The translations under genes were made by a program, and so were the position numbers. This document shows positions 16,595-35,312 of a DNA stretch of 35,312 nucleotides, piece by piece. The number at the start of each line of letters is the position of its first letter. The stretch's first letter is position 1. Source of the stretch: Elusimicrobiales bacterium (lineage in GTDB: Bacteria > Elusimicrobiota > Elusimicrobia > Elusimicrobiales > UBA9959); assembly GCA_023701245.1 (NCBI GenBank), contig JAMPXK010000023.1:1-35312 (forward strand), read 5' to 3'. Under the pieces are notes generated by a model. That model was not told where the DNA came from. It was given only the letters and a program-made list of their open reading frames with translations, and searched no databases.

Positions 16595-16624
16595 TTGACA
16601 GGATTTTTTTATTTGTGCTATACT
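16595..16624 (+). promoter_or_regulatory. rRNA operon promoter P1
   Basis: TTGACA (16595-16600) and TATACT (16619-16624) are separated by 18 nt, with a T-rich spacer. Transcription should start near 16631, about 510 nt before the 16S gene. Confidence 0.85.
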
Positions 16625-16748
16625 AATCTTGTTGTCGCAGAACGGTCCCTTAACAAGGGCAGCGAACCTGAAACAACCACCTGATCTTTTAAAGAAAAAA
16701 ACAACAGTGCGAAGTAAAAAAGTTTTTCGAACGCAAGTTTAAAAAACG

Positions 16749-16767
16749 TTTTCTCCGACGGAGAAAA
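16749..16767 (+). promoter_or_regulatory. Palindrome between rrn P1 and P2
   Basis: TTTTCTCC and GGAGAAAA form a perfect 8-bp stem around GAC, ending 6 nt before the P2 -35. It could be a protein-binding site for P2 or a hairpin in the P1 RNA. There is no T-run, so it is not a classical terminator. Confidence 0.4.
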
Positions 16768-16773
16768 TAACAG

Positions 16774-16803
16774 TTGACAAGGTTCGCAGTTTTGTGATAC
16801 TAT
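16774..16803 (+). promoter_or_regulatory. rRNA operon promoter P2
   Basis: TTGACA (16774-16779) is followed after 18 nt by TACTAT (16798-16803), or after 16 nt by GATACT. With P1 this gives the tandem promoter layout common for rRNA operons. Confidence 0.75.
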
Positions 16804-16888
16804 TTACTTACGGTCGCGAACACAAGCCGCAACCGTAACAAACGACCTTCTACCTGTGGAGTGGATTCCACAAAACAGGAAAAGGGTT

Positions 16889-16902
16889 TGCTCTCTAAAA
16901 AA
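16889..16902 (+). promoter_or_regulatory. boxA-like antitermination site in the rRNA leader
   Basis: TGCTCTCTAAAAA resembles the bacterial rrn boxA (TGCTCTTTAACA) and lies just before the 16S processing arm, as in other rRNA leaders. It is a likely loading site for NusB-NusE. Confidence 0.6.
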
Positions 16903-16903
16903 T

Positions 16904-16927
16904 TATGTATGAATGGGCACCCTGAAC
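16904..16927 (+). other. 16S rRNA processing stem, 5' arm
   Basis: This 24-nt arm pairs with 18709-18732 at 23 of 24 positions, looping out the whole 16S gene. The pairing is the expected RNase III substrate that releases pre-16S. Confidence 0.85.
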
Positions 16928-17041
16928 GTGGGAAACAGGGAAAGCCAAAAGAGGCCAGGCCTTAAAACCTGTCTGAACTTCTGGCGGACTCTGCGGAACA
17001 TGTTGATGGTGTAATATACGAAGCAATTACCTAATGGTGTG

Positions 17042-17058
17042 ATAACCAAGTTGGTTAT
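17042..17058 (+). other. Leader hairpin
   Basis: ATAACCA-AGT-TGGTTAT is a perfect 7-bp hairpin in the 16S leader between the processing arm and the gene. Its role is unknown. Confidence 0.4.
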
Positions 17059-17088
17059 GAACAATAGTAATAGAGCTAATTAGAACAC

Positions 17089-17139
17089 TCCGTAAATGCT
17101 AACTGCCGACAGCGAAGTTTGCTGTTAACAGTTACGGAT

Positions 17140-17144
<5 letters not shown>
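17089..17144 (+). other. Terminator-like hairpin at the 16S 5' end
   Basis: TCCGT/ACGGA, AACTG/CAGTT and ACAGC/GCTGT stack into one bulged hairpin (17089-17138), immediately followed by six T at the predicted 16S 5' end. It may be a 16S maturation hairpin or a pause/termination signal overcome by the boxA complex. Confidence 0.45.
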
Positions 17145-18664
<1,520 letters not shown>

Positions 18665-18708
18665 TTATTTCTTTCACGAGAAATATAGGTCGGTGCCATC
18701 AACCTTCG

Positions 18709-18732
18709 GTTCAGGGTGGCCATTCATACATA
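18709..18732 (+). other. 16S rRNA processing stem, 3' arm
   Basis: The complement of 16904-16927 with a single mismatch. It ends 6 nt before tRNA-Ile. Confidence 0.85.
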
Positions 18733-18738
18733 AGTTTT

Positions 18739-18812
18739 GGGCTCATAGCTCAGCTGGTTAGAGCGCACGCTTGATAAGCGTGAGGTCGATGGTTCAATTC
18801 CATCTGGGCCCA
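18739..18812 (+). tRNA. tRNA-Ile (anticodon GAU)
   Basis: A 74-nt cloverleaf. The acceptor arms GGGCTCA and TGGGCCC pair with one G-U, the anticodon loop is TTGATAA on a CACGC/GCGTG stem, and the T-loop is GGTTCAATTCC. The 3' CCA is not encoded. Its place in the 16S-23S spacer is standard. Confidence 0.97.
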
Positions 18813-18851
18813 TACGCTCTAAAAAGTGGCTATGACAGCCAGGCGACATTC

Positions 18852-18924
18852 GGGGCAGTAGCTCAGCTGGGAGAGCGCCTGCTTTGCAAGCAGGAGGTCG
18901 CCGGTTCGATCCCGGTCTGCTCCA
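18852..18924 (+). tRNA. tRNA-Ala (anticodon UGC)
   Basis: A 73-nt cloverleaf. The acceptor arms GGGGCAG and CTGCTCC pair with one G-U, the anticodon loop is TTTGCAA on a CCTGC/GCAGG stem, and the T-loop region is GGTTCGATCCC. CCA is not encoded. Confidence 0.97.
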
Positions 18925-18962
18925 AAAATTCCGAGCAGCCAGGCCCAATAAACAGATTTCGG

Positions 18963-18982
18963 TTCTTTGAAAATTCAAGCGC
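18963..18982 (+). promoter_or_regulatory. Spacer boxA-like site and outer processing arm
   Basis: GGTTCTTTGAAAA (from 18961) matches the boxA-like motif found in 16S-23S spacers of other bacteria. The segment 18965-18982 is also perfectly complementary over 18 nt to 22449-22466, just ahead of rplJ, so it can close an outer stem around the whole 23S-5S precursor. Confidence 0.7.
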
Positions 18983-19037
18983 AAATTCTAACGAACAAAC
19001 CATAATTCTCCTTCGGGAGTGGGCGAGTTCTAAACGA

Positions 19038-19094
19038 ATCTTAAAGCAATAGCGTCTTAATTTGGCAAAATTAAGACACACAATCACACCTTAG
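19038..19094 (+). other. 23S rRNA processing stem, 5' side, with inserted hairpin
   Basis: The segment 19038-19052 pairs perfectly with 22262-22276 (15 bp), and 19083-19094 pairs perfectly with 22245-22256 (12 bp). Between the two 5' arms sits a perfect 10-bp hairpin, GTCTTAATTT-GGCA-AAATTAAGAC (19054-19077), giving a three-way junction. This is the expected RNase III region for pre-23S. Confidence 0.85.
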
Positions 19095-19194
19095 TATACA
19101 TATGTGATAATAGTAAGAACGAACAAAGTTAGTTAAGGCAAAAGTAGGTAGAATACAAGTAACATTACCTTAATAGCTAGGATTAAAGAATAAG

Positions 19195-22210
<3,016 letters not shown>

Positions 22211-22244
22211 TTTTCTAATCCTAAATATTAGAACACATAGGCTG

Positions 22245-22276
22245 CTAAGGTGTGATAATAACTATTGCTTTAAGAT
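22245..22276 (+). other. 23S rRNA processing stem, 3' side
   Basis: Two adjacent arms, 22245-22256 and 22262-22276, pair with 19083-19094 and 19038-19052 respectively. Confidence 0.85.
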
Positions 22277-22297
22277 ACGCGCTTTCCTGCGATTAAT

Positions 22298-22421
22298 AAG
22301 ACCGGTGTTTATTCCGGAGAGGTTACACCCGTTCCCATTCCGAACACGGCAGTTAAGGTCTCCAGGGCTGATGGTACTAACACCCAACCCGGTGTTGGCA
22401 GAGTAGGTCGATGCCGGTCTT
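22298..22421 (+). rRNA. rrf: 5S ribosomal RNA
   Basis: The core is 124 nt, bounded by AAGACCGG and CCGGTCTT. Typical internal elements are visible: CCCATTCCGAACACGG, GGGCTGATGGTACT and GCAGAGTAGG. The terminal stem extends beyond the gene as a perfect 20-bp inverted repeat, CCTGCGATTAATAAGACCGG at 22286 with its complement ending at 22433, which is the likely processing stem. Mature ends are approximate. Confidence 0.95.
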
Positions 22422-22448
22422 ATTAATCGCAGGGGAGCAAATAGAATA

Positions 22449-22468
22449 GCGCTTGAATTTTCAAAGGA
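22449..22468 (+). promoter_or_regulatory. Outer processing arm in the rplJ leader
   Basis: GCGCTTGAATTTTCAAAGGA is the complement of the tRNA-Ala/23S spacer boxA region (18 contiguous pairs, plus a G-U pair and another pair). It ends 17 nt before the rplJ ATG, so cleavage of this stem would create the 5' end of the rplJ message. Confidence 0.65.
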
Positions 22469-22485
22469 TCGAAGCAGGCAATCCA

Positions 22486-22998
22486 ATGAAGATCACGAAA
22501 ACCGACAAAAAAGCGCTCGCCGAGACCCTTGGCAAGGAATTTTCCGCCAAGGACACCTTCTTTGCGACGTTCAACGGCATGAAGTTCAAGGATGCCAACG
22601 GTCTTCGCGACAACCTGCGCCCGACCAAGGCCAAGTTCAAGGTAATGCGCAACACCGTAGTGGCGCACGCCCTGCAGAACGCTTCCCTGAAGCCCGCCGA
22701 CGCGACCGTGGCCAAAGGCCCTACCGCCGTCGTCACCCTGGAAGACTCCAACGAAGTCACCCGCGTAGCCAAAGAGCTGATGGCGTTCGCCAAAGCCAAC
22801 CCCGGCGTGATCTGGAAGGGCGGCTTCTACGAGAAGAAGTGGCTTTCCCCCGAAGATATCTCCAAACTGTCCAAGATCGGCTCCAAGGCCGAACTCCTGG
22901 GACAGCTGGCCGGCACGCTGTACTCCAGCATCGCCCAGATCCGCTACATCCTGGAAGCTCTCAAAGAGCAGAAAGAAAAAGCGGAAGCCCCTAAATAA
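22486..22998 (+). CDS. rplJ: 50S ribosomal protein L10
   Basis: A 170-residue protein that anchors L7/L12 dimers to the 23S rRNA at the GTPase centre. The pattern KITKTDKKALAETLGKEF, then FKVMRNTVVAHAL, KGPTAVV, KGGFYEKKWL and LLGQLAGTLYSSIAQI is typical L10, and the helical C-terminus (YILEALKEQKEK) is the L7/L12-binding tail. A TTG at 22453 is in frame, but it lies inside the outer rRNA processing arm and adds unconserved residues, so the ATG at 22486 is used. The Shine-Dalgarno is weak. The gene begins 64 nt after 5S with no terminator or promoter between. In E. coli L10 represses its own leader; that leader is replaced here by rRNA spacer. Confidence 0.96.
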   Translation: MKITKTDKKALAETLGKEFSAKDTFFATFNGMKFKDANGLRDNLRPTKAKFKVMRNTVVAHALQNASLKPADATVAKGPTAVVTLEDSNEVTRVAKELMAFAKANPGVIWKGGFYEKKWLSPEDISKLSKIGSKAELLGQLAGTLYSSIAQIRYILEALKEQKEKAEAPK

Positions 22999-23198
22999 CC
23001 CAAAATTTGCTATAATTTAAGTAGATTGGTGAGTAAGTAGTCCGTGTTTAGATCCTTCACTCCTCCATCTGCGTTTCGTCGTCTCTATAAATTTGCAGTA
23101 AATCCTGGTAGTCCCGCCAGTAAAAGGGGATAAACTGCCCGCTTAGGCGGACAGGCTACTAAAAAACACCGCCTCCCGGCGGAAAAAGGAGCCCTAAA
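22999..23198 (+). promoter_or_regulatory. rplL leader with a candidate extended -10 promoter
   Basis: TGCTATAAT at 23008-23016 is a perfect extended -10, placed 10 nt after the rplJ stop. A start near 23023 would give a leader of about 175 nt. That leader contains an 8-bp hairpin with one mismatch around TTAG (CTGCCCGC/GCGGACAG, 23136-23155) and CCGCC-TCCC-GGCGG just before the AAAGGAG site (23185-23191). rplJ and rplL are usually only tens of nt apart, so the long gap probably allows extra L7/L12 synthesis. Confidence 0.6.
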
Positions 23199-23591
23199 AT
23201 GGCAACCGTAAGCAAAGACCAGCTGTTAGAAGCGATCGGCAGCATGACGATAATGGAACTGTCCGACCTGGTGAAAGGCATCGAGGACAAGTTCGGCGTG
23301 AAGGCCGCCCCCGTAGGCGTGGCCGTGGCCGCCGGAGCCCCCGGAGCCGCCGCCGGCGGAGCCGCCGAGGAAAAGACGGAGTTCACCGTCGTCCTGAAAG
23401 CCGTCACCGACGCCGCCAAGAAGATCTCCGTTATCAAAGTTGTCCGCGAACTGACCGGCCTGGGCCTGAAAGAGTCCAAGGACCTGGTGGAAGGCGCCCC
23501 CAAGAACGTGAAAGAGGGCGTGGACAAGAAGACCGCCGACGAAATGAGCAAGAAGCTCACCGAAGCCGGCGGCGCCGTCGAACTGAAATAA
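23199..23591 (+). CDS. rplL: 50S ribosomal protein L7/L12
   Basis: A 130-residue stalk protein, present in several copies per ribosome, that recruits EF-G, EF-Tu, IF2 and RF3. The N-terminal dimerisation domain ([21 protein letters not shown]) is joined by an Ala/Gly/Pro hinge (about 43-61) to the factor-binding domain, with [38 protein letters not shown] and a C-terminal GGAVELK. Length and layout are standard. AAAGGAG lies 7 nt before the ATG. It sits between rplJ and rpoB, with its own possible promoter upstream and attenuator-like hairpins downstream. Confidence 0.97.
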
Positions 23592-23603
23592 CACGCCGTA
23601 AAA

Positions 23604-23655
23604 CCGCCGTCCGCTTTAACGCGGGCGGCGGTGTCGTTTGGCCGGACTACCGGCC
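23604..23655 (+). terminator. Attenuator-like hairpins between rplL and rpoB
   Basis: CCGCCGTCCGC/GCGGGCGGCGG (23604-23631) is an 11-bp stem with one G-U, followed by TGTCGTTT, a weak T-tract. A second hairpin, GGCCGG-ACTA-CCGGCC (23640-23655), follows. Their position matches the partial terminator between rplL and rpoB in E. coli, which lowers rpoBC output relative to L7/L12. Confidence 0.6.
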
Positions 23656-23722
23656 GCCAGTTGCGTACCAGTGAATTTGTGTTAAAACAAGCTTATACGC
23701 GGTAACATAAGCGGTGTAGACT

Positions 23723-23752
23723 TATCCCTTCTGCCCTAAGGCGGAAGGGATA
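23723..23752 (+). promoter_or_regulatory. rpoB leader hairpin
   Basis: TATCCCTTCTGCC and GGCGGAAGGGATA form a 13-bp stem with one G-U around a CTAA loop. It ends 25 nt before the GAGGTGA ribosome site region of rpoB and has no T-run. RNase III cleavage site and regulatory hairpin are both possible. Confidence 0.55.
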
Positions 23753-23787
23753 GGCCTGCTATTCGGGTTAAACTACGAGGTGAACTG

Positions 23788-26700
23788 ATGAAACAGCTTA
23801 ACTTCTCCAAGATAGGCCAGATACTCAAAGTACCGGACCTCCTCGACATGCAGAAGCAGTCGTTCGACTGGTTCCTCCAGCTGGACGAAAAACCCGAAAA
23901 CCGCAAGATCCAGGGCCTCCAGGCCTCTTTCGTGGACGTGTTCCCGATAGAGTCCGCCGACGGCACCATGGTGATGGACTTCCTCAAGTACGAGCTGGGC
24001 ACGCCCAAGTACACCGGCCCCGAAGAAGCCCTCGCCCGCGGCGGCTCCTACTCCACCCCGCTCAAGGCCTACATGTCGCTGTCGCTCAAGCAGGAGAGCG
24101 GCAAGCTCAAGCACATGATCGACCAGGACGTAACCCTGTGCGAGCTGCCCATCATGACCGACACCGGCTCGTTCATCTTCAACGGCGCCGAGCGCATCGT
24201 GGTGAGCCAGCTGCACCGCTCCCCCGGCATCATTTTCGAGGACGACGAGGAAAAGAAGCAGTCCGTCCTCGGCAAGCCGCTGTTCTACGCCCGCGTGATC
24301 CCGTACCGCGGCGCCTGGGTGGAATTCGAATTCGACACCGACAACGTCCTCTGGGTCCGCCTGGACCGCAAGAAGAAGATCCTCGCCACCACTTTCGTCA
24401 AGGCCGCCGGCCTTGAGACCAACGCCGAGATCCTGCAGGCCTTCTACCCGTCGGTGGAAGTGCCCGTCAACCAGGACAACGCCGCCAATATCATCGGCAA
24501 GTACGCCATAGAGGACATCGTGGACAAGAGTTCCGGCGAAGTGCTCTGGAACCTGGAAGAGAAGGCCGCCGTCGCCCTGGACGAGAAAGCCTTCAAGGCC
24601 ATGGTGGACCGCAAGGTGAAGACCGTCACCCTGATAAAGGGCAACCCCAAGGAAGACAACCCCGGCGTGATCCTGGCCCTGGAGGCCAAGAACCAGCCCA
24701 AGACCGCTTCCGACGCGCGCTACGAGATCTACAAGAAAATGCGCGGCCAGGACTTCATCGTGAAGGAACAGGCCGAGGAATACCTGGACAATATCCTGTT
24801 CAAGAGCCTGCGCCGCTACGACTTCTCCGTGGTGGGCCGCTACAAGGCCATGCGCAAGCTGCGCCCGCTCTACGAAGAGCTGGCCAAGACCGACAAACGC
24901 TACAAGGTCCCCGGCGACAAGATGCGCAACATCTCGCTGGAAGACATCCTGGTCACCATTAAGTACCTGATGGCCCTCAACTCCGGCGCCGCCTCTTTCG
25001 ATTACCAGGGCGCCAAGTTCGAGTACAAGGTGGACGACATCGACCACCTGGGCAACCGCCGCGTGCGCTCCATCGGCGAACTGCTGGAGAACCAGATCCG
25101 CGTGGCCCTGGTGCAGATAGCGCGCAACGTGCGCGACCGCATGAGCAAGGAAGACAAGACCGTGACGCCCCGCACGCTGGTGAACGCCGCCCCCGTGGTG
25201 GCCATCATGCGCAAGTTCTTCGGTACGTCGCAGCTGTCGCAGTTCATGGACCAGATCAACCCGCTGGCCGAACTGACCCACAAGCGCCGCCTGTCGGCCC
25301 TTGGCCCGGGCGGTCTGAACCGCAAGCGCGCCGGCTTCGAAGTCCGCGACGTGCACTACACGCATTACGGCCGCGTCTGCCCCATCGAAACGCCCGAAGG
25401 TCCGAACATCGGTCTTATCGTTTCGCTGGCCGCCTACGCCAAGGTCAACCAGTACGGCCTCATAGAGACCCCGTACCGCAAGATCACCAATAAGAAAGTC
25501 ACCGACGAAGCCGACTACGTCACCGCCTACATCGAAGACGACATCTTCGTGGGCCAGGCCAACACCCCCATAGAGAGCGGCAAGCTCTCCACGGACCGCG
25601 TGTACGGCCGCCTGAAGGACGAGTACGTGTTCGTGGATTCCGACCAGGTGACCTACATGGACGTCAGCCCCATGCAGGTGGTGTCCATCTCCGCCTCGCT
25701 GGTGCCCTTCCTGGAACACGACGACGCCAACCGCGCCCTGATGGGTTCCAACATGATGAGGCAGGCGGTGCCGCTGCTCAAGACCGAAGTGCCCCTGGTG
25801 GGCACCGGCATGGAGCCGGCCATCGCCCGCGACAGCCGCGCCTGCGTGACCGCCCGCACCTCGGGCAAGGTCATTTACGCGTCCGCGGACATGATAGCCA
25901 TAAAGCCGGAGCACAGCAAAGAACCGGATATCTATCACCTCATTAAGTACCGCCGTTCCAACCAGGACACCTGCGTGAACCAGGTGCCCACCGTGCAGAG
26001 CGGCGACGAGATCAAGAAAGGCGACATTATAGCCGACGGCCCCGCTACCAAGGACGGCCAGCTGGCCCTGGGCAAGAACCTGCTGGTGGCCTTCATGAGC
26101 TGGGAAGGCTTCAACTACGAAGACGCCATCCTGGTCTCCGAGAAGGTAGTGGAAGACGACGCGCTGACCTCCATCTTCATCGAAGAGTTCGAAGTGGAAG
26201 CCCGCGACACCAAGCTGGGCCCGGAAGAAATAACCCGCGACATCCCCAACGTCGGCACCGACGCCCTGGAGCACATCGACAACGACGGCGTAGTGATCCC
26301 GTCCACCATGGTGCGCCCCGGCGACATCCTGGTCTGCAAGGTGTCCCCCAAAGGCGAGCAGCAGCTGTCCCCCGAAGAGCGCCTGCTGAAGGTGATCTTC
26401 GGCAAGAAGGCCGAAGACGTGACCGACACTTCCATGCGCGTGCCCCCCGGCGTGTACGGCAAGATCATCGGCACCCGCGTGTTCGTGCGCCGGGAAAAGC
26501 TGAGCAAGCCCGAGGAAGACCGCCGCAAGAAGGAAATCGACGCGGAAATGAATTACAACCTGGACGCCCTGAAGGAGTTCCGCAAGGAAACCTCCAAGAA
26601 AGGCTCCGAGACCGAAGAGTTCTGCAAGCAGATGGAGAAGCGCATCAAGGAAAAGTTCGCCCGCGAGAAGGAAATGCTGAAGTCCTCCGGCGAACTGCCC

Positions 26701-27666
26701 GTCACCGTCAATAAAGTGGTGAAGGTGCACATCGCCCTGAAGCGCCGCCTGCAGGTGGGCGACAAGCTCTCCGGCCGCCACGGCAACAAGGGCGTAGTGG
26801 CCCGCATCCTGCCGCGCGAAGACATGCCCTATATGCCCGACGGCACCCCCGTCGACGTAGTGCTCTCCCCGCTGGGCGTGCCCTCCCGCATGAACATCGG
26901 CCAGATCCTCGAGACCATGCTGGGCTGGGCCGGCAAGCAGCTGGACACCCAGATGTACTGCCCCGTGTTCGACAGCGCGGCCGAGGATAACAAGGATTAC
27001 TGGAAGTACTGGGAGAAGAAAGGCCGTAAGCGCGGCGACATCACCATAGACGACGTGCTTAAGGACATGGAGAAGCACCCCGGCGGCGAAAAGCCGGGCG
27101 TCATACAGATGATACAGCTGGCCAAGGACCACCTTAAGGCCAAGGGCGTGCCGGAAGAGTATCTGCCGGACGACTACTGCCGCATCACGCTGTTCGACGG
27201 CCGCACCGGCGAGGCCTTCCACGAGAAGGTCACCATCGGCTACCTGTACATCCTCAAGCTCATCCACCTGGTGGAAGACAAGGTACACGCCCGCAGCACA
27301 GGCCCATACAGCCTCATCACGCGCCAGCCCCTGGGCGGTAAGGCCCTGTTCGGCGGCCAGCGCTTCGGCGAAATGGAAGTCTGGGCGCTCGAAGGCTACG
27401 GCGCCGCGTACACCCTGCAGGAAATGCTCACCGTGAAGTCCGACGACTTCACCGGCCGCACCAAGATGTACGAAGCCATCATCAAAGGCGACTTCCCGCC
27501 CCAGCCCGGCGTGCCGGAATCCTTCAAGGTGCTTGTGAAGGAACTCCAGGCCCTGGCGCTGGAAGTGGACCTGCTCAATACGCCCCCGCCGTCCAAGAAG
27601 GGCGCCGCGGAAGAAGAGGAAAAGGGCGCCGCCAAGAAGAAGACCGCGGCGAAAGCCGAGAAGTAA
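23788..27666 (+). CDS. rpoB: DNA-directed RNA polymerase subunit beta
   Basis: The 1,292-residue beta subunit. It forms one side of the catalytic cleft and the rifampicin pocket. The start MKQLNFSKIGQILKVPDLL follows GAGGTGA at 23777-23783. The rifampicin region is at about 479-509 (TSQLSQFMDQINPL, then THKRRLSALGPGG), with the usual Asp488, His498 and Ser503 (E. coli 516, 526, 531) retained. Catalytic-face motifs include GDKLSGRHGNKG and VLSPLGVPSRMNIGQ. The C-terminal clamp segment GGKALFGGQRFGEMEVWALE is present. A Lys/Glu/Ala-rich tail (about 1270-1292) extends past the conserved end. The long transversal insertion of proteobacterial beta subunits appears absent. It is followed by rpoC after 92 nt. 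Confidence 0.98.
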   Translation: MKQLNFSKIGQILKVPDLLDMQKQSFDWFLQLDEKPENRKIQGLQASFVDVFPIESADGTMVMDFLKYELGTPKYTGPEEALARGGSYSTPLKAYMSLSLKQESGKLKHMIDQDVTLCELPIMTDTGSFIFNGAERIVVSQLHRSPGIIFEDDEEKKQSVLGKPLFYARVIPYRGAWVEFEFDTDNVLWVRLDRKKKILATTFVKAAGLETNAEILQAFYPSVEVPVNQDNAANIIGKYAIEDIVDKSSGEVLWNLEEKAAVALDEKAFKAMVDRKVKTVTLIKGNPKEDNPGVILALEAKNQPKTASDARYEIYKKMRGQDFIVKEQAEEYLDNILFKSLRRYDFSVVGRYKAMRKLRPLYEELAKTDKRYKVPGDKMRNISLEDILVTIKYLMALNSGAASFDYQGAKFEYKVDDIDHLGNRRVRSIGELLENQIRVALVQIARNVRDRMSKEDKTVTPRTLVNAAPVVAIMRKFFGTSQLSQFMDQINPLAELTHKRRLSALGPGGLNRKRAGFEVRDVHYTHYGRVCPIETPEGPNIGLIVSLAAYAKVNQYGLIETPYRKITNKKVTDEADYVTAYIEDDIFVGQANTPIESGKLSTDRVYGRLKDEYVFVDSDQVTYMDVSPMQVVSISASLVPFLEHDDANRALMGSNMMRQAVPLLKTEVPLVGTGMEPAIARDSRACVTARTSGKVIYASADMIAIKPEHSKEPDIYHLIKYRRSNQDTCVNQVPTVQSGDEIKKGDIIADGPATKDGQLALGKNLLVAFMSWEGFNYEDAILVSEKVVEDDALTSIFIEEFEVEARDTKLGPEEITRDIPNVGTDALEHIDNDGVVIPSTMVRPGDILVCKVSPKGEQQLSPEERLLKVIFGKKAEDVTDTSMRVPPGVYGKIIGTRVFVRREKLSKPEEDRRKKEIDAEMNYNLDALKEFRKETSKKGSETEEFCKQMEKRIKEKFAREKEMLKSSGELPVTVNKVVKVHIALKRRLQVGDKLSGRHGNKGVVARILPREDMPYMPDGTPVDVVLSPLGVPSRMNIGQILETMLGWAGKQLDTQMYCPVFDSAAEDNKDYWKYWEKKGRKRGDITIDDVLKDMEKHPGGEKPGVIQMIQLAKDHLKAKGVPEEYLPDDYCRITLFDGRTGEAFHEKVTIGYLYILKLIHLVEDKVHARSTGPYSLITRQPLGGKALFGGQRFGEMEVWALEGYGAAYTLQEMLTVKSDDFTGRTKMYEAIIKGDFPPQPGVPESFKVLVKELQALALEVDLLNTPPPSKKGAAEEEEKGAAKKKTAAKAEK

Positions 27667-27701
27667 GCGCCCCGCGGTCTTGAGCGCGGGCCGGAGAGGA
27701 A

Positions 27702-27725
27702 CGGCCGGGGGCTAGGCCCCGGCCG
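27702..27725 (+). other. rpoB-rpoC intergenic hairpin
   Basis: CGGCCGGGG and CCCCGGCCG form a 9-bp stem around GCTAGG, 33 nt before the rpoC ATG. With no T-run it is more likely an mRNA-processing or stabilising structure than a terminator. Confidence 0.5.
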
Positions 27726-27758
27726 CAGCAGAGAGAAAAACGATTCGGAGACTAAACT

Positions 27759-31972
<4,214 letters not shown>

Positions 31973-31973
<1 letters not shown>

Positions 31974-31997
31974 CCGGGAGGGTAACCCCTTTCCGGT
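31973..31997 (+). promoter_or_regulatory. Hairpin enclosing the rpsL Shine-Dalgarno
   Basis: ACCGG (31973-31977) pairs with CCGGT (31993-31997), continued by GAGGG with CCCTT (one G-U, one bulged T), giving about 10 bp around a TAAC loop. The only Shine-Dalgarno-like sequence near rpsL, GGGAGGG, is inside the stem, and the rpsL ATG follows 6 nt after it. Confidence 0.5.
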
Positions 31998-32003
31998 GTT
32001 TAT

Positions 32004-32417
32004 ATGTCTACAATTAACCAGCTCATCAGGCATGGCCGGACCAAGGCCCGCAAGTTCAGCAAGGCCCCGGCCCTCATGTCCTGCCCGCAGCGCCGCGGCG
32101 TCTGCACCCGCGTGTACACCACCACGCCCAAGAAGCCGAATTCGGCCCTCCGGAAGGTGGCCCGCGTAAAGCTGACCAGCAAGCAGGAAGTCACCGCCTA
32201 CATCCCCGGCGTGGGCCATAACCTGCAGGAACACTCCATAGTGATGGTGCGCGGAGGCCGCGTGAAGGACCTGCCCGGCGTGCGCTACCACATTGTGCGC
32301 GGCGCGCTGGACGCTTCCGGCGTGGAAGGCCGCATGCAGAGCCGCTCTTGCTACGGCGCCAAGCGCCCCAAGGGCGAGAAGAAGCCCGGCCGCAAAGGCG
32401 CGGAAGCCGGCAAATAA
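32004..32417 (+). CDS. rpsL: 30S ribosomal protein S12
   Basis: A 137-residue protein of the decoding centre. The conserved [19 protein letters not shown] loop and [26 protein letters not shown] loop are intact, with the lysines whose mutation gives streptomycin resistance still in place. The C-terminus carries a short extra basic tail ([14 protein letters not shown]) compared with E. coli S12. It starts 30 nt after rpoC behind a hairpin that covers its ribosome site, and begins the str gene set rpsL-rpsG-fusA-tuf. Confidence 0.97.
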
Positions 32418-32450
32418 CCCGACAAACTAATAAGGACTGGATAAACTACT

Positions 32451-32930
32451 ATGCCTAGAAAAGGTTTAAAACCCCGCGAACGCCGTGAAGCCCCGCCGCC
32501 GGATTTCAAGTACAACTCCGTGCTGCTCGCCCGCATGATCAACCGCATCAACTTCCAGGGCAAGAAGATCGTGGGCGAACGCCTGGTTTACGGCGCGCTC
32601 GAGATCATCAAGGAAAAGATCAAGGAAGAGCCGCTCGCGGTCTTCACCAAGGCCATAGAGAACGTCCGGCCCCTGCTGGAAGTAAAGGCCCGCCGCGTCG
32701 GCGGCGCCAACTACCAGGTGCCGATCGAAGTCCGCCCCGCCCGCAGCGCCACCCTGGCGATGCGCTGGATCCTGGGCGCCGCGCGCGACCGCAAAGGCCG
32801 CCCGATGGCCGAGCACCTGGCCGAAGAGATATTGCTCGCTTACAAGAAAGAAGGCGCGGCCTTCAAAAAGCGCGAAGACACCCACCGCATGGCCGAAGCC
32901 AACAGGGCTTTCGCCCACTACCGCTGGTAG
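32451..32930 (+). CDS. rpsG: 30S ribosomal protein S7
   Basis: A 159-residue primary assembly protein that nucleates the 30S head and touches E-site t[15 protein letters not shown], then the conserved VARMINR-like [47 protein letters not shown] and [21 protein letters not shown] are present. Length and sequence are standard. AAGGA lies 14 nt before the ATG, longer than usual. In E. coli, S7 binds the rpsL-rpsG junction to repress the str operon; the 33-nt junction here is too short to show an obvious copy of that structure. Confidence 0.97.
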
Positions 32931-32987
32931 AAGCGGCCAAAGGATACGAGGGGCAGGGCAGCAGTTTAACTACGCAAGGATAATAAC

Positions 32988-35081
32988 ATGGCAGAACTCG
33001 ACTTACACAAAGTACGCAACACCGGCATCATCGCCCACATCGACGCGGGCAAGACCACCACTACCGAGCGTATCCTTTATTACACCGGCAAATCGCATAA
33101 GATCGGCGAAGTGCACGAGGGCAACACCACCACCGACTGGATGCCCCAGGAGCGCGAGCGCGGCATAACCATAACCGCGGCCGCCATCTCCACCCAGTGG
33201 CAGGGCTACACCGTAAACATCATAGACACCCCCGGCCACGTGGACTTTACCGCCGAAGTGGAGCGCAGCCTCCGCGTGCTCGACGGCGCCGTGACCGTGT
33301 TCGACGGCGTGCAGGGCGTGGAGCCCCAGAGCGAGACCGTGTGGCGCCAGGCCGACAAGTACCATGTGCCCCGCGTGGCCTACGTCAACAAGATGGACCG
33401 CATCGGCGCGGACTTCTACATGTCCGCCAATTCCATAGTGGAGAAGCTGGGCGCCAACGCGGCCCCCATCCAGCTGCCCATCGGCGTGACGGAAACTTTC
33501 AAAGGCCTCATCGACCTGGTGAAGATGAAGGCGCTGATCTGGATCGGCGACGACCTGGGCGCGCACTTCGACGAACTGGAGATCCCGGCCGACATGCTGG
33601 AAGAGGCCAAGAAGTACCGGGCCAACCTCATAGAGAAGCTGGCCGACTTCGACGAGAAGATCATGGAGAAGTACCTGGCCGGCGAGACCGAGTACTCCGT
33701 GGCCGAGCTCAAGAGCGCCATCCGCCGCGGCACCCTGACCTGCAAATTCTTCCCCGTGCTGTGCGGTTCCTCCTATAAGAACAAGGGCGTGCAGCCCATG
33801 CTGGACGCCGTTATAGACTTCCTGCCCGGCCCGCTGGACGTGCCCCCGGTCATCTGCCACGACGCCCACACCGGCGCGGAAGTTACCCGCAAGGCCGACG
33901 CCAAAGAACCTTTCTGCGCGCTGCTCTTCAAGATCCAGCCCGACCCCTTCGTGGGCAAGCTGACGTTCTTCCGCGTGTACTCCGGCACCCTTAAGCCCGG
34001 CGACACCGTGTACTTCGGCCGCAAGAAGAACACCGAGCGCATCGGCCGTATCCTGCGCATGCACGCCGACAAGCGCCAGGAGATCAAGGAGATCTCCGCC
34101 GGCGACATCGCCGCCACCGTGGCCATAAAGAGCGCCACCGTGGGCGAGACCATCTGCGACCCCGAGCATCCCGTGATCCTGGAAGGCATCACCTTCCCCG
34201 AGCCGGTCATCCAGATCTCCATCGAGCCGAAGTCCAAAGAGGACGAGCAGAAGATGGGCCTGGCCATGGGCCGCCTGGCCGAAGAAGACCAGACCTTCCG
34301 CATCAAGACCGACGAAGAGACCGGCCAGACCATCATCTCCGGCATGGGCGAACTCCACCTGGACATCATCGTGGACCGTCTGCGCCGCGAATTCAACGTG
34401 CAGGCCAACGTGGGCCGCCCGCAGGTGGCTTTCCGCGAGTCCATCAAGAAAAAGGTGGAGCAGGAAGGCAAGTTCATCCGCCAGTCCGGCGGCCGCGGCC
34501 AGTACGGCCACGTGTGGCTCACCGTGGAGCCGCAGGAACTCAACAAAGGCTTCGAATTCGTCGACAATATCAAGCAGGGCCGCATTCCCAAGGAATTCAT
34601 CCCCGCCGTGGAAAAGGGCGTACGCGAAGCGCTGGACGCCGGCGTTATGGCCGGTTTCCCCGTGGTGGACATCAAGGTGACGCTGTTCGACGGCTCCTTC
34701 CACGAAGTTGACTCTTCCGAAATCGCCTTCAAGATAGCCGGCGCCATGGCGTTCAAGGACGCCTGCCGCAAGGCCACGCCTTACCTGATGGAACCCATCA
34801 TGAAGATCGAAGTGGTGACGCCCGAAGTGAACATGGGCGACGTGATAGGCGACCTTTCGAGCCGCCGCGCCAAGATCGTGGAGATGGGCAGCCGCGGCAA
34901 CGCGCGCGCCGTGAAGGGCACCGTGCCGCTCTCCGAGATGTTCGGCTACTCTACGGTAGTGCGCTCCATCTCTCAGGGCCGCGCTTCCTTCACCATGGAA
35001 CCCTCCCACTACGAAGAGGTTCCGCCGAACATCGCCAAGTCCGTGATCGAAACGCGGACCGCGGCGGCCGAGGCTAAATAA
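32988..35081 (+). CDS. fusA: Elongation factor G
   Basis: A 697-residue GTPase that drives ribosomal translocation and, with RRF, recycling. The G domain has [13 protein letters not shown] near 16-28, DTPGHVDF and NKMD. Switch I carries [14 protein letters not shown]. Domains II-V follow with the expected [14 protein letters not shown] and the C-terminal [14 protein letters not shown] and [18 protein letters not shown]. Full length and unremarkable. It is one of two EF-G-like GTPases here, the other being RF3. AAGGAT precedes the ATG. It is 67 nt upstream of tuf. Confidence 0.98.
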
Positions 35082-35088
35082 GATCTGT

Positions 35089-35111
35089 CCGCCGGTCGGC
35101 AAAGCCGGCGG
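35089..35111 (+). other. fusA-tuf intergenic hairpin
   Basis: CCGCCGG and CCGGCGG form a 7-bp stem with a 9-nt loop, without a T-run. It is probably an mRNA structure rather than a terminator, since tuf follows 38 nt later with no visible promoter. Confidence 0.4.
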
Positions 35112-35148
35112 GCTTAAAGCAAGCTAAACGTAAAGCAAGGAGCAAAAA

Positions 35149-35312
35149 ATGGCAAAAGCAAAGTTCGACCGCAGCAAGCCCCACGTCAACGTAGGCACCA
35201 TCGGCCACGTCGACCACGGTAAATCCACTCTGACCACCGCGCTGGTCAAGGTCCAGTCCGAAAAGGGCCTGGCCAACCTGAAGTCCTACGCCGAGATCAC
35301 GAAGGGCGGCAC
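35149..35312 (+). CDS. tuf: Elongation factor Tu (partial, cut by the window end)
   Basis: The first 54 residues and part of the next codon of EF-Tu, which delivers aminoacyl-tRNA to the ribosome. [32 protein letters not shown] is the typical N-terminus. The P-loop is GHVDHGKS, with Ser where most EF-Tu have Thr. The segment YAEITKGG replaces the common YDQIDNAPEE, so switch I may be of a divergent type; the rest lies beyond the window. AAGGAG sits 6 nt before the ATG. Last gene of the cluster in view. Confidence 0.95.

What the first reader, a model, noticed from the sequence alone, without database searches (positions are those of the whole stretch)
16595..35312. rRNA operon joined directly to rplJL-rpoBC-rpsLG-fusA-tuf
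5S ends 64 nt before rplJ, on the same strand, with no T-run terminator and no recognisable promoter between. In most bacteria rplJ follows secE-nusG-rplK-rplA; here that block is split exactly at rplA/rplJ and an rRNA operon occupies its place. If P1/P2 read through, rRNA, the L10-L7/L12 stalk, the RNA polymerase core, S12/S7 and elongation factors are under one growth-rate control point. RNA polymerase synthesis tied to rRNA promoters would be a positive feedback loop that needs damping, perhaps by the hairpins downstream.
Basis: partly seen in the sequence, partly recalled or inferred. Interest (0 to 1): 0.75.

Follow-up and report, generated by a model that had tools for sequence, protein, structure and literature searches.

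The report
rRNA operon running into rplJ
In this bacterium, and in most sampled relatives of its phylum, the ribosomal RNA operon sits just before the genes for ribosomal stalk protein L10 and RNA polymerase, and in this family so close that L10 appears to be made from the rRNA transcript itself.

Summary
5S ends 66 nt before rplJ; no terminator and no sigma-70-like site lies between. Of 104 sampled genomes of the phylum (Elusimicrobiota, inferred) with both genes found, 98 have 5S upstream of rplJ on the same strand within 12 kb; 4 are separated, 2 undetermined. In the window's family, 27 of 27 readable junctions are 24-221 nt long (20 of them at most 67). In the window's genus the 5S-rplJ spacer is one arm of a 26-bp helix with the boxA-like segment before 23S; covariation is present but rests on five genomes. 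rplJ is therefore probably expressed by read-through of the rRNA operon and freed by rRNA processing. The bolder claim (one control point for rRNA, stalk, RNA polymerase, S12/S7 and elongation factors) is only partly supported: a possible extended -10 promoter, a new covarying RNA element (47 genomes, one each, always just after rplJ) and a strong hairpin before rpoB lie in between. Elsewhere in the phylum the junction holds an outer-membrane-type gene, an L10-leader attenuator, or a terminator and unrelated genes. In 75 sampled loci not assigned to the phylum I found no rRNA next to rplJ; 65 have rplA there. There are no transcript data.

The parts
16595..16624 (+). rRNA promoter P1 (TTGACA, 18 nt, TATACT)
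   Evidence: consensus scan 11/12; kept in L212 and G120
16774..16803 (+). rRNA promoter P2
   Evidence: 10/12; kept in L212 and G120
16889..16927 (+). leader boxA-like segment and 5' arm of a 16S processing stem
   Evidence: almost identical in 3 genomes; leader pairs with the post-16S spacer, score 58 against a maximum of 32.5 in 300 shuffles; the name boxA is recalled
17140..18663 (+). 16S rRNA
18738..18924 (+). tRNA-Ile (18738-18813) and tRNA-Ala (18852-18924)
18957..18982 (+). 5' arm of the outer 23S-5S helix, containing a boxA-like segment
   Evidence: pairs with 22449-22474; spacer against gap 56.5, shuffle maximum 32.5, 0 of 1000 as high
19194..22209 (+). 23S rRNA
22301..22419 (+). 5S rRNA, the only match in the assembly
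22449..22474 (+). 3' arm of the outer helix, lying in the rplJ leader
22486..22998 (+). rplJ (L10)
   Evidence: NF000955, 100.9 bits against cut-off 85, on the frame 22453-22998; start chosen
23008..23016 (+). possible extended -10 (TGCTATAAT) for rplL-rpoBC
   Evidence: same or one-letter variant in six of seven genus members looked at
23101..23165 (+). R1: structured RNA element (three-way junction) before rplL
   Evidence: covariation; 58.3 bits (the window's copy is one of the 17 that built the model); no Rfam family
23199..23591 (+). rplL (L7/L12)
   Evidence: TIGR00855
23603..23632 (+). 12-bp G+C-rich hairpin between rplL and rpoB, no U-tract
23716..23759 (+). second long hairpin before rpoB
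23788..27666 (+). rpoB
   Evidence: TIGR02013
27759..31973 (+). rpoC
   Evidence: TIGR02386
32004..32417 (+). rpsL
   Evidence: TIGR00981
32451..32930 (+). rpsG
   Evidence: TIGR01029
32988..35081 (+). fusA
   Evidence: TIGR00484
35149..35312 (+). start of tuf, cut by the contig end
   Evidence: sequence; by eye the same protein start as the complete tuf of G144

Best explanation
The window shows an extended rRNA operon. Transcription starts at P1/P2, passes 16S, tRNA-Ile, tRNA-Ala, 23S and 5S, and runs without an intrinsic terminator into rplJ. Shown from sequence: the adjacency, the short terminator-free gap, the absence of a sigma-70-like site in it, and the helix. Inferred: transcription and cleavage. 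In the window's genus the 5S-rplJ spacer pairs with the boxA-like segment before 23S in a 26-bp helix around 23S and 5S; RNase III (gene present) could cut it, releasing pre-23S/5S and giving rplJ mRNA its 5' end about 12-37 nt before the start codon. L10 output would then follow rRNA synthesis, in place of the L10-leader control found elsewhere in the phylum. L7/L12 and RNA polymerase would get read-through plus extra control: in the genus possibly a promoter just after rplJ, then the R1 RNA, then a hairpin before rpoB. The direct fusion is probably older than this family.
For: Gap 24-142 nt in 13 of 13 sampled f1 genomes and 44-138 nt in 4 of 4 f7 genomes, none with a terminator-like hairpin plus T-run. 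14 further f1 genomes have 34-221 nt. In 11 of the 13 f1 gaps no pair of hexamers reaches 4 of 6 each; two (G080, G086) reach 8/12. Helix in the window: 56.5 against at most 32.5 in 1000 shuffles; over 5 genomes 96.2% of cells paired, 21.5-50.8% when slid, 2 pairs with changes on both sides. P1, P2 and leader kept in L212 and G120. RNase III gene in 5 of 5 f1 genomes searched. L10 leader RF00557: 0 of 15 f1 genomes, 22 of 149 in the phylum, 19 of these upstream of rplJ on its strand. R1: 47 of 149 genomes, one hit each, 47 of 47 within 270 nt after the rplJ match; 98.5% of cells paired, at most 52.5% slid. G130 and G128, with gaps of 210 and 130 nt, branch early in f2, the sister of f1.
Against: No RNA data. 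A promoter of another type, or one inside 23S/5S, is not excluded. Two f1 genomes (G154, G155) have a T8 run right after the 5S stem. The helix is counted in only 5 genomes; shuffles reach the observed value in 13/500 for three measures, 68/500 and 366/500 for the other two. It was not found in G030 or G108 and not seen in G152, G153 or G154. P1/P2 were not found at 10/12 in G108 (f1) or G084 (f7). G156 (f1) has a partial 5S match without rplJ. In most of f2 and some of f10 a terminator-like site or other genes lie between, and four genomes have lost the linkage. One rplJ message per rRNA would give too much L10 unless it is short-lived or poorly translated (inference).
Confidence: 0.75

Rival explanations
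1. rplJ has its own promoter, of a type the consensus scan misses or lying inside 23S/5S, and rRNA transcription ends after 5S by Rho. The adjacency is then only positional.
For: Promoters of non-sigma-70 type are not covered by the scan. Promoter-like sites occur in most longer gaps of f2, f10 and f17, where chance matches are also more likely; no shuffle control was run. G154 and G155 have a T8 run after 5S.
Against: Gaps of 24, 34, 35, 41, 44 and 47 nt leave no room between 5S and the start codon. In the genus the gap is used by a paired helix. No site of 9/12 or more in the 13 f1 gaps scanned.
Confidence: 0.15
2. Old neutral synteny: one early rearrangement placed rRNA before rplJ, and the order persists without functional coupling.
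For: 98 of 104 genomes keep the order although the gap ranges from 24 nt to 12 kb with unrelated genes. 22 of 24 long-gap f2 genomes have a terminator-like site within 130 nt of 5S (no shuffle control).
Against: Elements sit exactly at the junction: the helix arm in the rplJ leader, L10 leaders 24-37 nt after 5S in four genomes, and outer-membrane-type genes that abut both 5S and rplJ.
Confidence: 0.1

Closest known systems
rplKAJL-rpoBC operon of Escherichia coli
   Same: rplJ-rplL-rpoB-rpoC order; hairpins between rplL and rpoB, where E. coli has an attenuator and an RNase III site (Barry et al. 1980, seen only as a reference-list entry in PMC5371410; details recalled)
   Different: rRNA operon in place of rplKA; no L10 leader found; no U-tract after the first hairpin in the window
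L10 leader attenuator (RF00557; B. subtilis type)
   Same: present upstream of rplJ in other families of the phylum, where it could act on read-through (B. subtilis mechanism from passages of PMC10931766)
   Different: not found in the window or in any of the 15 f1 genomes searched
Bacterial rRNA operon with distal tRNA genes (recalled)
   Same: tandem promoters, boxA-like leader, processing stems, a further cistron after 5S
   Different: the distal cistron is a ribosomal protein gene heading the RNA polymerase and translation-factor cluster

Membership tests
canonical rplKAJL-rpoBC operon | rplA directly upstream of rplJ | tested here: not met
   rRNA lies there in the window; no rplA match in G000. 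In 18 sampled genomes with rplA and rplJ on one contig they are at least 14 kb apart. 65 of 80 sampled loci have rplA there
canonical rplKAJL-rpoBC operon | rplJ-rplL-rpoB-rpoC order on one strand | tested here: met
L10 leader-regulated rplJ | RF00557 before rplJ | tested here: not met
   no match in the window or f1
E. coli-type rplL-rpoB attenuator | stem followed by U-tract | tested here: inconclusive
   strong stem; T in the 8 nt after it: 3 in the window, 1-4 in the 13 f1, 3-6 in the 4 f7
rRNA operon with 16S-tRNA-23S-5S order | tandem promoters, boxA-like leader, processing stems | tested here: met
   by sequence only
rRNA-protein gene cotranscription | one transcript spanning 5S and rplJ | not testable with these tools
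   needs RNA

The most novel reading that the evidence does not exclude
In Elusimicrobiota the rRNA operon has been, since early in the phylum, the head of one transcription unit that also makes L10, L7/L12, the RNA polymerase core, S12, S7 and elongation factors, with lineage-specific valves set into it: an outer-membrane-type cistron coupled to rplJ, an L10-sensing attenuator, the R1 RNA, or a terminator. In the window's genus the rplJ leader also captures boxA and so could switch off rRNA antitermination exactly at the rRNA/mRNA border.
Probability: 0.3. Interest if true: 0.85.

Novelty: new variant of a known kind. Interest (0 to 1): 0.62.

Why it matters
In model bacteria rRNA genes and the ribosomal-protein/RNA-polymerase genes are separate units that must be balanced by feedback (recalled). 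Here they are joined, in genomes where 103 of 106 with a 5S match show just one, so the rRNA promoter may set L10 supply directly. The phylum offers many natural versions of the junction, which makes the question of how cells match rRNA, stalk protein and RNA polymerase testable by comparison. R1 is a candidate new ribosomal-protein leader.

Tried and rejected
Assembly error: rejected (27 assemblies of the family; G034 and G023 keep the order on single contigs of 1.64 and 1.59 Mb, with gaps of 6.0 and 1.6 kb). A promoter before rpsL (31871-31900): set aside, since the -10 falls on rpoC codons ENVIIGH (read by eye; that the motif is conserved is recalled); the DNA search (13 of 32 genus genomes) was not analysed further. 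The terminator-like hit 22389-22417 is part of 5S. Known RNA families in 22420-23800: five matches with E 1.5-8, all far below gathering score. RF00557 hits in G044, G146 and G148 are below cut-off and not on the rplJ contig; taken as chance. Pfam on four outer-membrane-type proteins: only matches below cut-off, DUF6588 (2.8e-5, 0.027) and OMP_b-brl (0.2). Literature: searches were made for this junction; two found no paper, the others listed 2, 8, 3, 1 and 1. I saw listings only, except passages of PMC9476967 (one rRNA operon in an Elusimicrobiota genome). None listed is about this junction by title or start of abstract. One search was for background; passages of PMC5371410 and PMC10931766 were seen. 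Only open-licence papers are held.

Dropped from counts: 45 of 149 genomes lacking a 5S or an L10 match. L12 was not found in G142, G006 and G015, so they are not in the tree. In the window's family only 30 of 59 genomes matched the junction query, many assemblies lacking this stretch. R1 alignment A2 holds 17 of 42 elements extracted; G086 is misaligned by one column there and was kept; my pattern missed G084, which the model finds. G149 (N at the junction), G156 and G176 are not among the 14 extra f1 junctions. The outer-membrane-type set differs between script (16 genomes) and profile search (18). In one search my tuf query began one base late and found nothing; tuf was placed from the open frames.
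Full report
What is there. The window is a whole 35.3-kb contig of a 2.55-Mb genome in 96 contigs with one 5S match. Rfam and profile searches give 16S-tRNA-Ile-tRNA-Ala-23S-5S followed on the same strand by rplJ, rplL, rpoB, rpoC, rpsL, rpsG, fusA and the first 164 nt of tuf. The 5S-rplJ gap is 66 nt.

How general it is. In a sample of 149 genomes of the phylum, 106 have a 5S match, 119 an L10 match, 104 both. 98 have both on one contig, in each case 5S upstream of rplJ on the same strand and within 12 kb. Of the six others, G026, G048, G060 and G096 have contigs long enough to show separation (by at least about 20 kb on the 5S side); G099 (contig ends) and G013 (a 33-nt 5S match below cut-off) are undetermined. 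rplA was found in 143 of 149 genomes; of 114 with both rplA and L10 matches, 18 have them on one contig, 14 kb to 573 kb apart. As an outgroup test, 80 rplL loci from many phyla were taken (a capped list of the best of 589). 65 have rplA 0.6-1.2 kb upstream of the rplL match. Of the 15 without, 5 are Elusimicrobiota (four by title; L135 by its contig length, that of G014:C21), 3 have under 600 nt upstream, 7 are others. With a 5S profile and BLAST of the window's 16S/23S, rRNA close before rplJ was found only in three Elusimicrobiota loci (L136, L142, L212). L180 (Clostridia) has 5S further up with rplA between; L151 has a 16S end at its edge.

Where the missing genes went. In G144 (window's genus), G124 and G077 the order is 5S-rplJ-rplL-rpoB-rpoC-rpsL-rpsG-fusA-tuf-secE-nusG-rplK-rplA on one strand, with one full-length tuf each (secE, nusG and rplK recognised by eye from the translations). 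G017, G023, G034 and G036 have two full-length tuf genes, one after the fusA cluster and one before rplA. The joined order is a circular permutation of the usual one, cut between rplA and rplJ and closed at tuf, which recombination between two tuf copies could give (inference). The window ends inside tuf, as does the contig of G173 and, by position, that of G110. In ten f2 genomes rplA instead lies upstream of rplJ on the same strand, at 30-34 kb in eight, 40 kb in G016 and 61 kb in G034; in two (G013, G096) it lies 38 kb downstream.

Why read-through into rplJ is the best reading. In the window's family (f1) the gap is 24-142 nt in 13 of 13 sampled genomes, with no terminator-like hairpin and T-run; 14 more f1 genomes from a family-wide search have 34-221 nt, with a T8 run in two (G154, G155). 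In 11 of the 13 gaps no hexamer pair reaches 4 of 6 each; two reach 8/12. In the window's genus the gap carries one arm of a helix with the boxA-like segment before 23S: score 56.5 against at most 32.5 in 1000 shuffles. Among five genomes 96.2% of cells pair, against 21.5-50.8% when slid; two pairs change on both sides; 13 to 366 of 500 shuffles reach the observed values, by measure. Shorter or bulged versions can be read by eye in G086, G114, G162 and G157. None was found in G030 and G108, none seen in G152, G153 and G154. RNase III is encoded in 5 of 5 f1 genomes searched.

Why the whole cluster need not share one control point. After the rplJ stop the window has TGCTATAAT (23008-23016). Of seven genus members looked at, four have TGnTATAAT (G000, G057, G144, L212), two TGnTATACT (G106, G110), and G120 neither at that place; close relatedness may explain this. 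Further on lies R1, a three-way junction: 98.5% of cells paired (at most 52.5% slid), 34 cells with changes on both sides against a shuffle mean of 9.4; two measures are weaker, 16/500 and 88/500 (17 sequences). A model of it hits 47 of 149 genomes, once each, within 270 nt after the rplJ match: 12 of 15 f1, 32 of 43 f2, 3 of 6 f7, no other family, with filters that lose weak matches. L136, L142, L149 and L212 also have it; the only hit among the other sampled loci is L179 at E = 0.46. It matches no Rfam family. In the rplL-rpoB gap the best stem is 8-18 bp in the 13 f1 and 11-21 bp in the 4 f7 genomes, weak in G108 and G028; the U-tract is mostly missing in f1.

Other solutions in the phylum. 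The L10 leader RF00557 was found in 22 genomes (13 over cut-off), none of them f1. 19 lie upstream of rplJ on its strand, 16-136 nt from the L10 match in 15 and 365-877 nt in four (G026, G141, G046, G020). In G141, G046, G020 and G033 the leader begins 24-37 nt after 5S, so it may meter rRNA read-through; in G020 and G046 a frame of about 280-300 aa stands between it and rplJ. In f2, 22 of 24 genomes with long gaps have a terminator-like site within 130 nt of 5S (no shuffle control), and the gaps hold varied frames. In f5, f6, f8, f9, f12, f15-f19, f21 and f22 a protein called at 205-278 aa, outer-membrane barrel-like by eye and by weak Pfam matches, lies between 5S and rplJ (16 genomes by script). 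In G041, G088, G124, G054 and G004 it starts 14-63 nt after 5S and its stop overlaps the rplJ start by 4 nt or leaves 1 nt. A profile of six of them finds 18 of 149 genomes: 16 lie at this junction, one of these (G066) a remnant with stops; G027 has it elsewhere and G021 cannot be placed. None was found in f1, f2 or f7. A FastTree of L10+L12 for 95 genomes, rooted at the midpoint, puts f1 with f2 (0.98) and both with f7 and f8 (1.0); short-gap G130 and G128 branch early in f2, though one node there has support 0.19 and long-gap G134 lies between them. I read the direct fusion as ancestral to f1, f2 and perhaps f7.

Verdict. Its mechanism is likely right for rplJ, unproven for rpoBC and beyond. 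The searches in an open-licence library listed no paper on this junction by title or abstract start.

Noticed in passing
window 23101-23165: R1: new covarying RNA element just after rplJ, one per genome in 47 genomes of three related families; candidate L10/L12 leader.
   Followed up: yes
G041, G088, G124, G054, G004, G037, G077 and others (L128, L087, L088, L126, L119, L122, L132): Outer-membrane-barrel-like gene as the cistron right after 5S, abutting rplJ in several; remnant in G066.
   Followed up: partly
L049, L050 (G053, G102): Group I intron matches and split 23S matches in the two f4 genomes.
   Followed up: no
L041 798-3118 and 3823-8109 (G108): 16S match of about 2.3 kb, reported under the archaeal model, and 23S match of about 4.3 kb; both probably carry insertions.
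   Followed up: no
L277 15987-16638 (G144): rplA is split into two overlapping frames in a congener; frameshift or assembly error.
   Followed up: no
L044 (G120), upstream of 16S: A third promoter-like TTGACA site, apparently from a duplicated promoter segment, before the rRNA operon.
   Followed up: no
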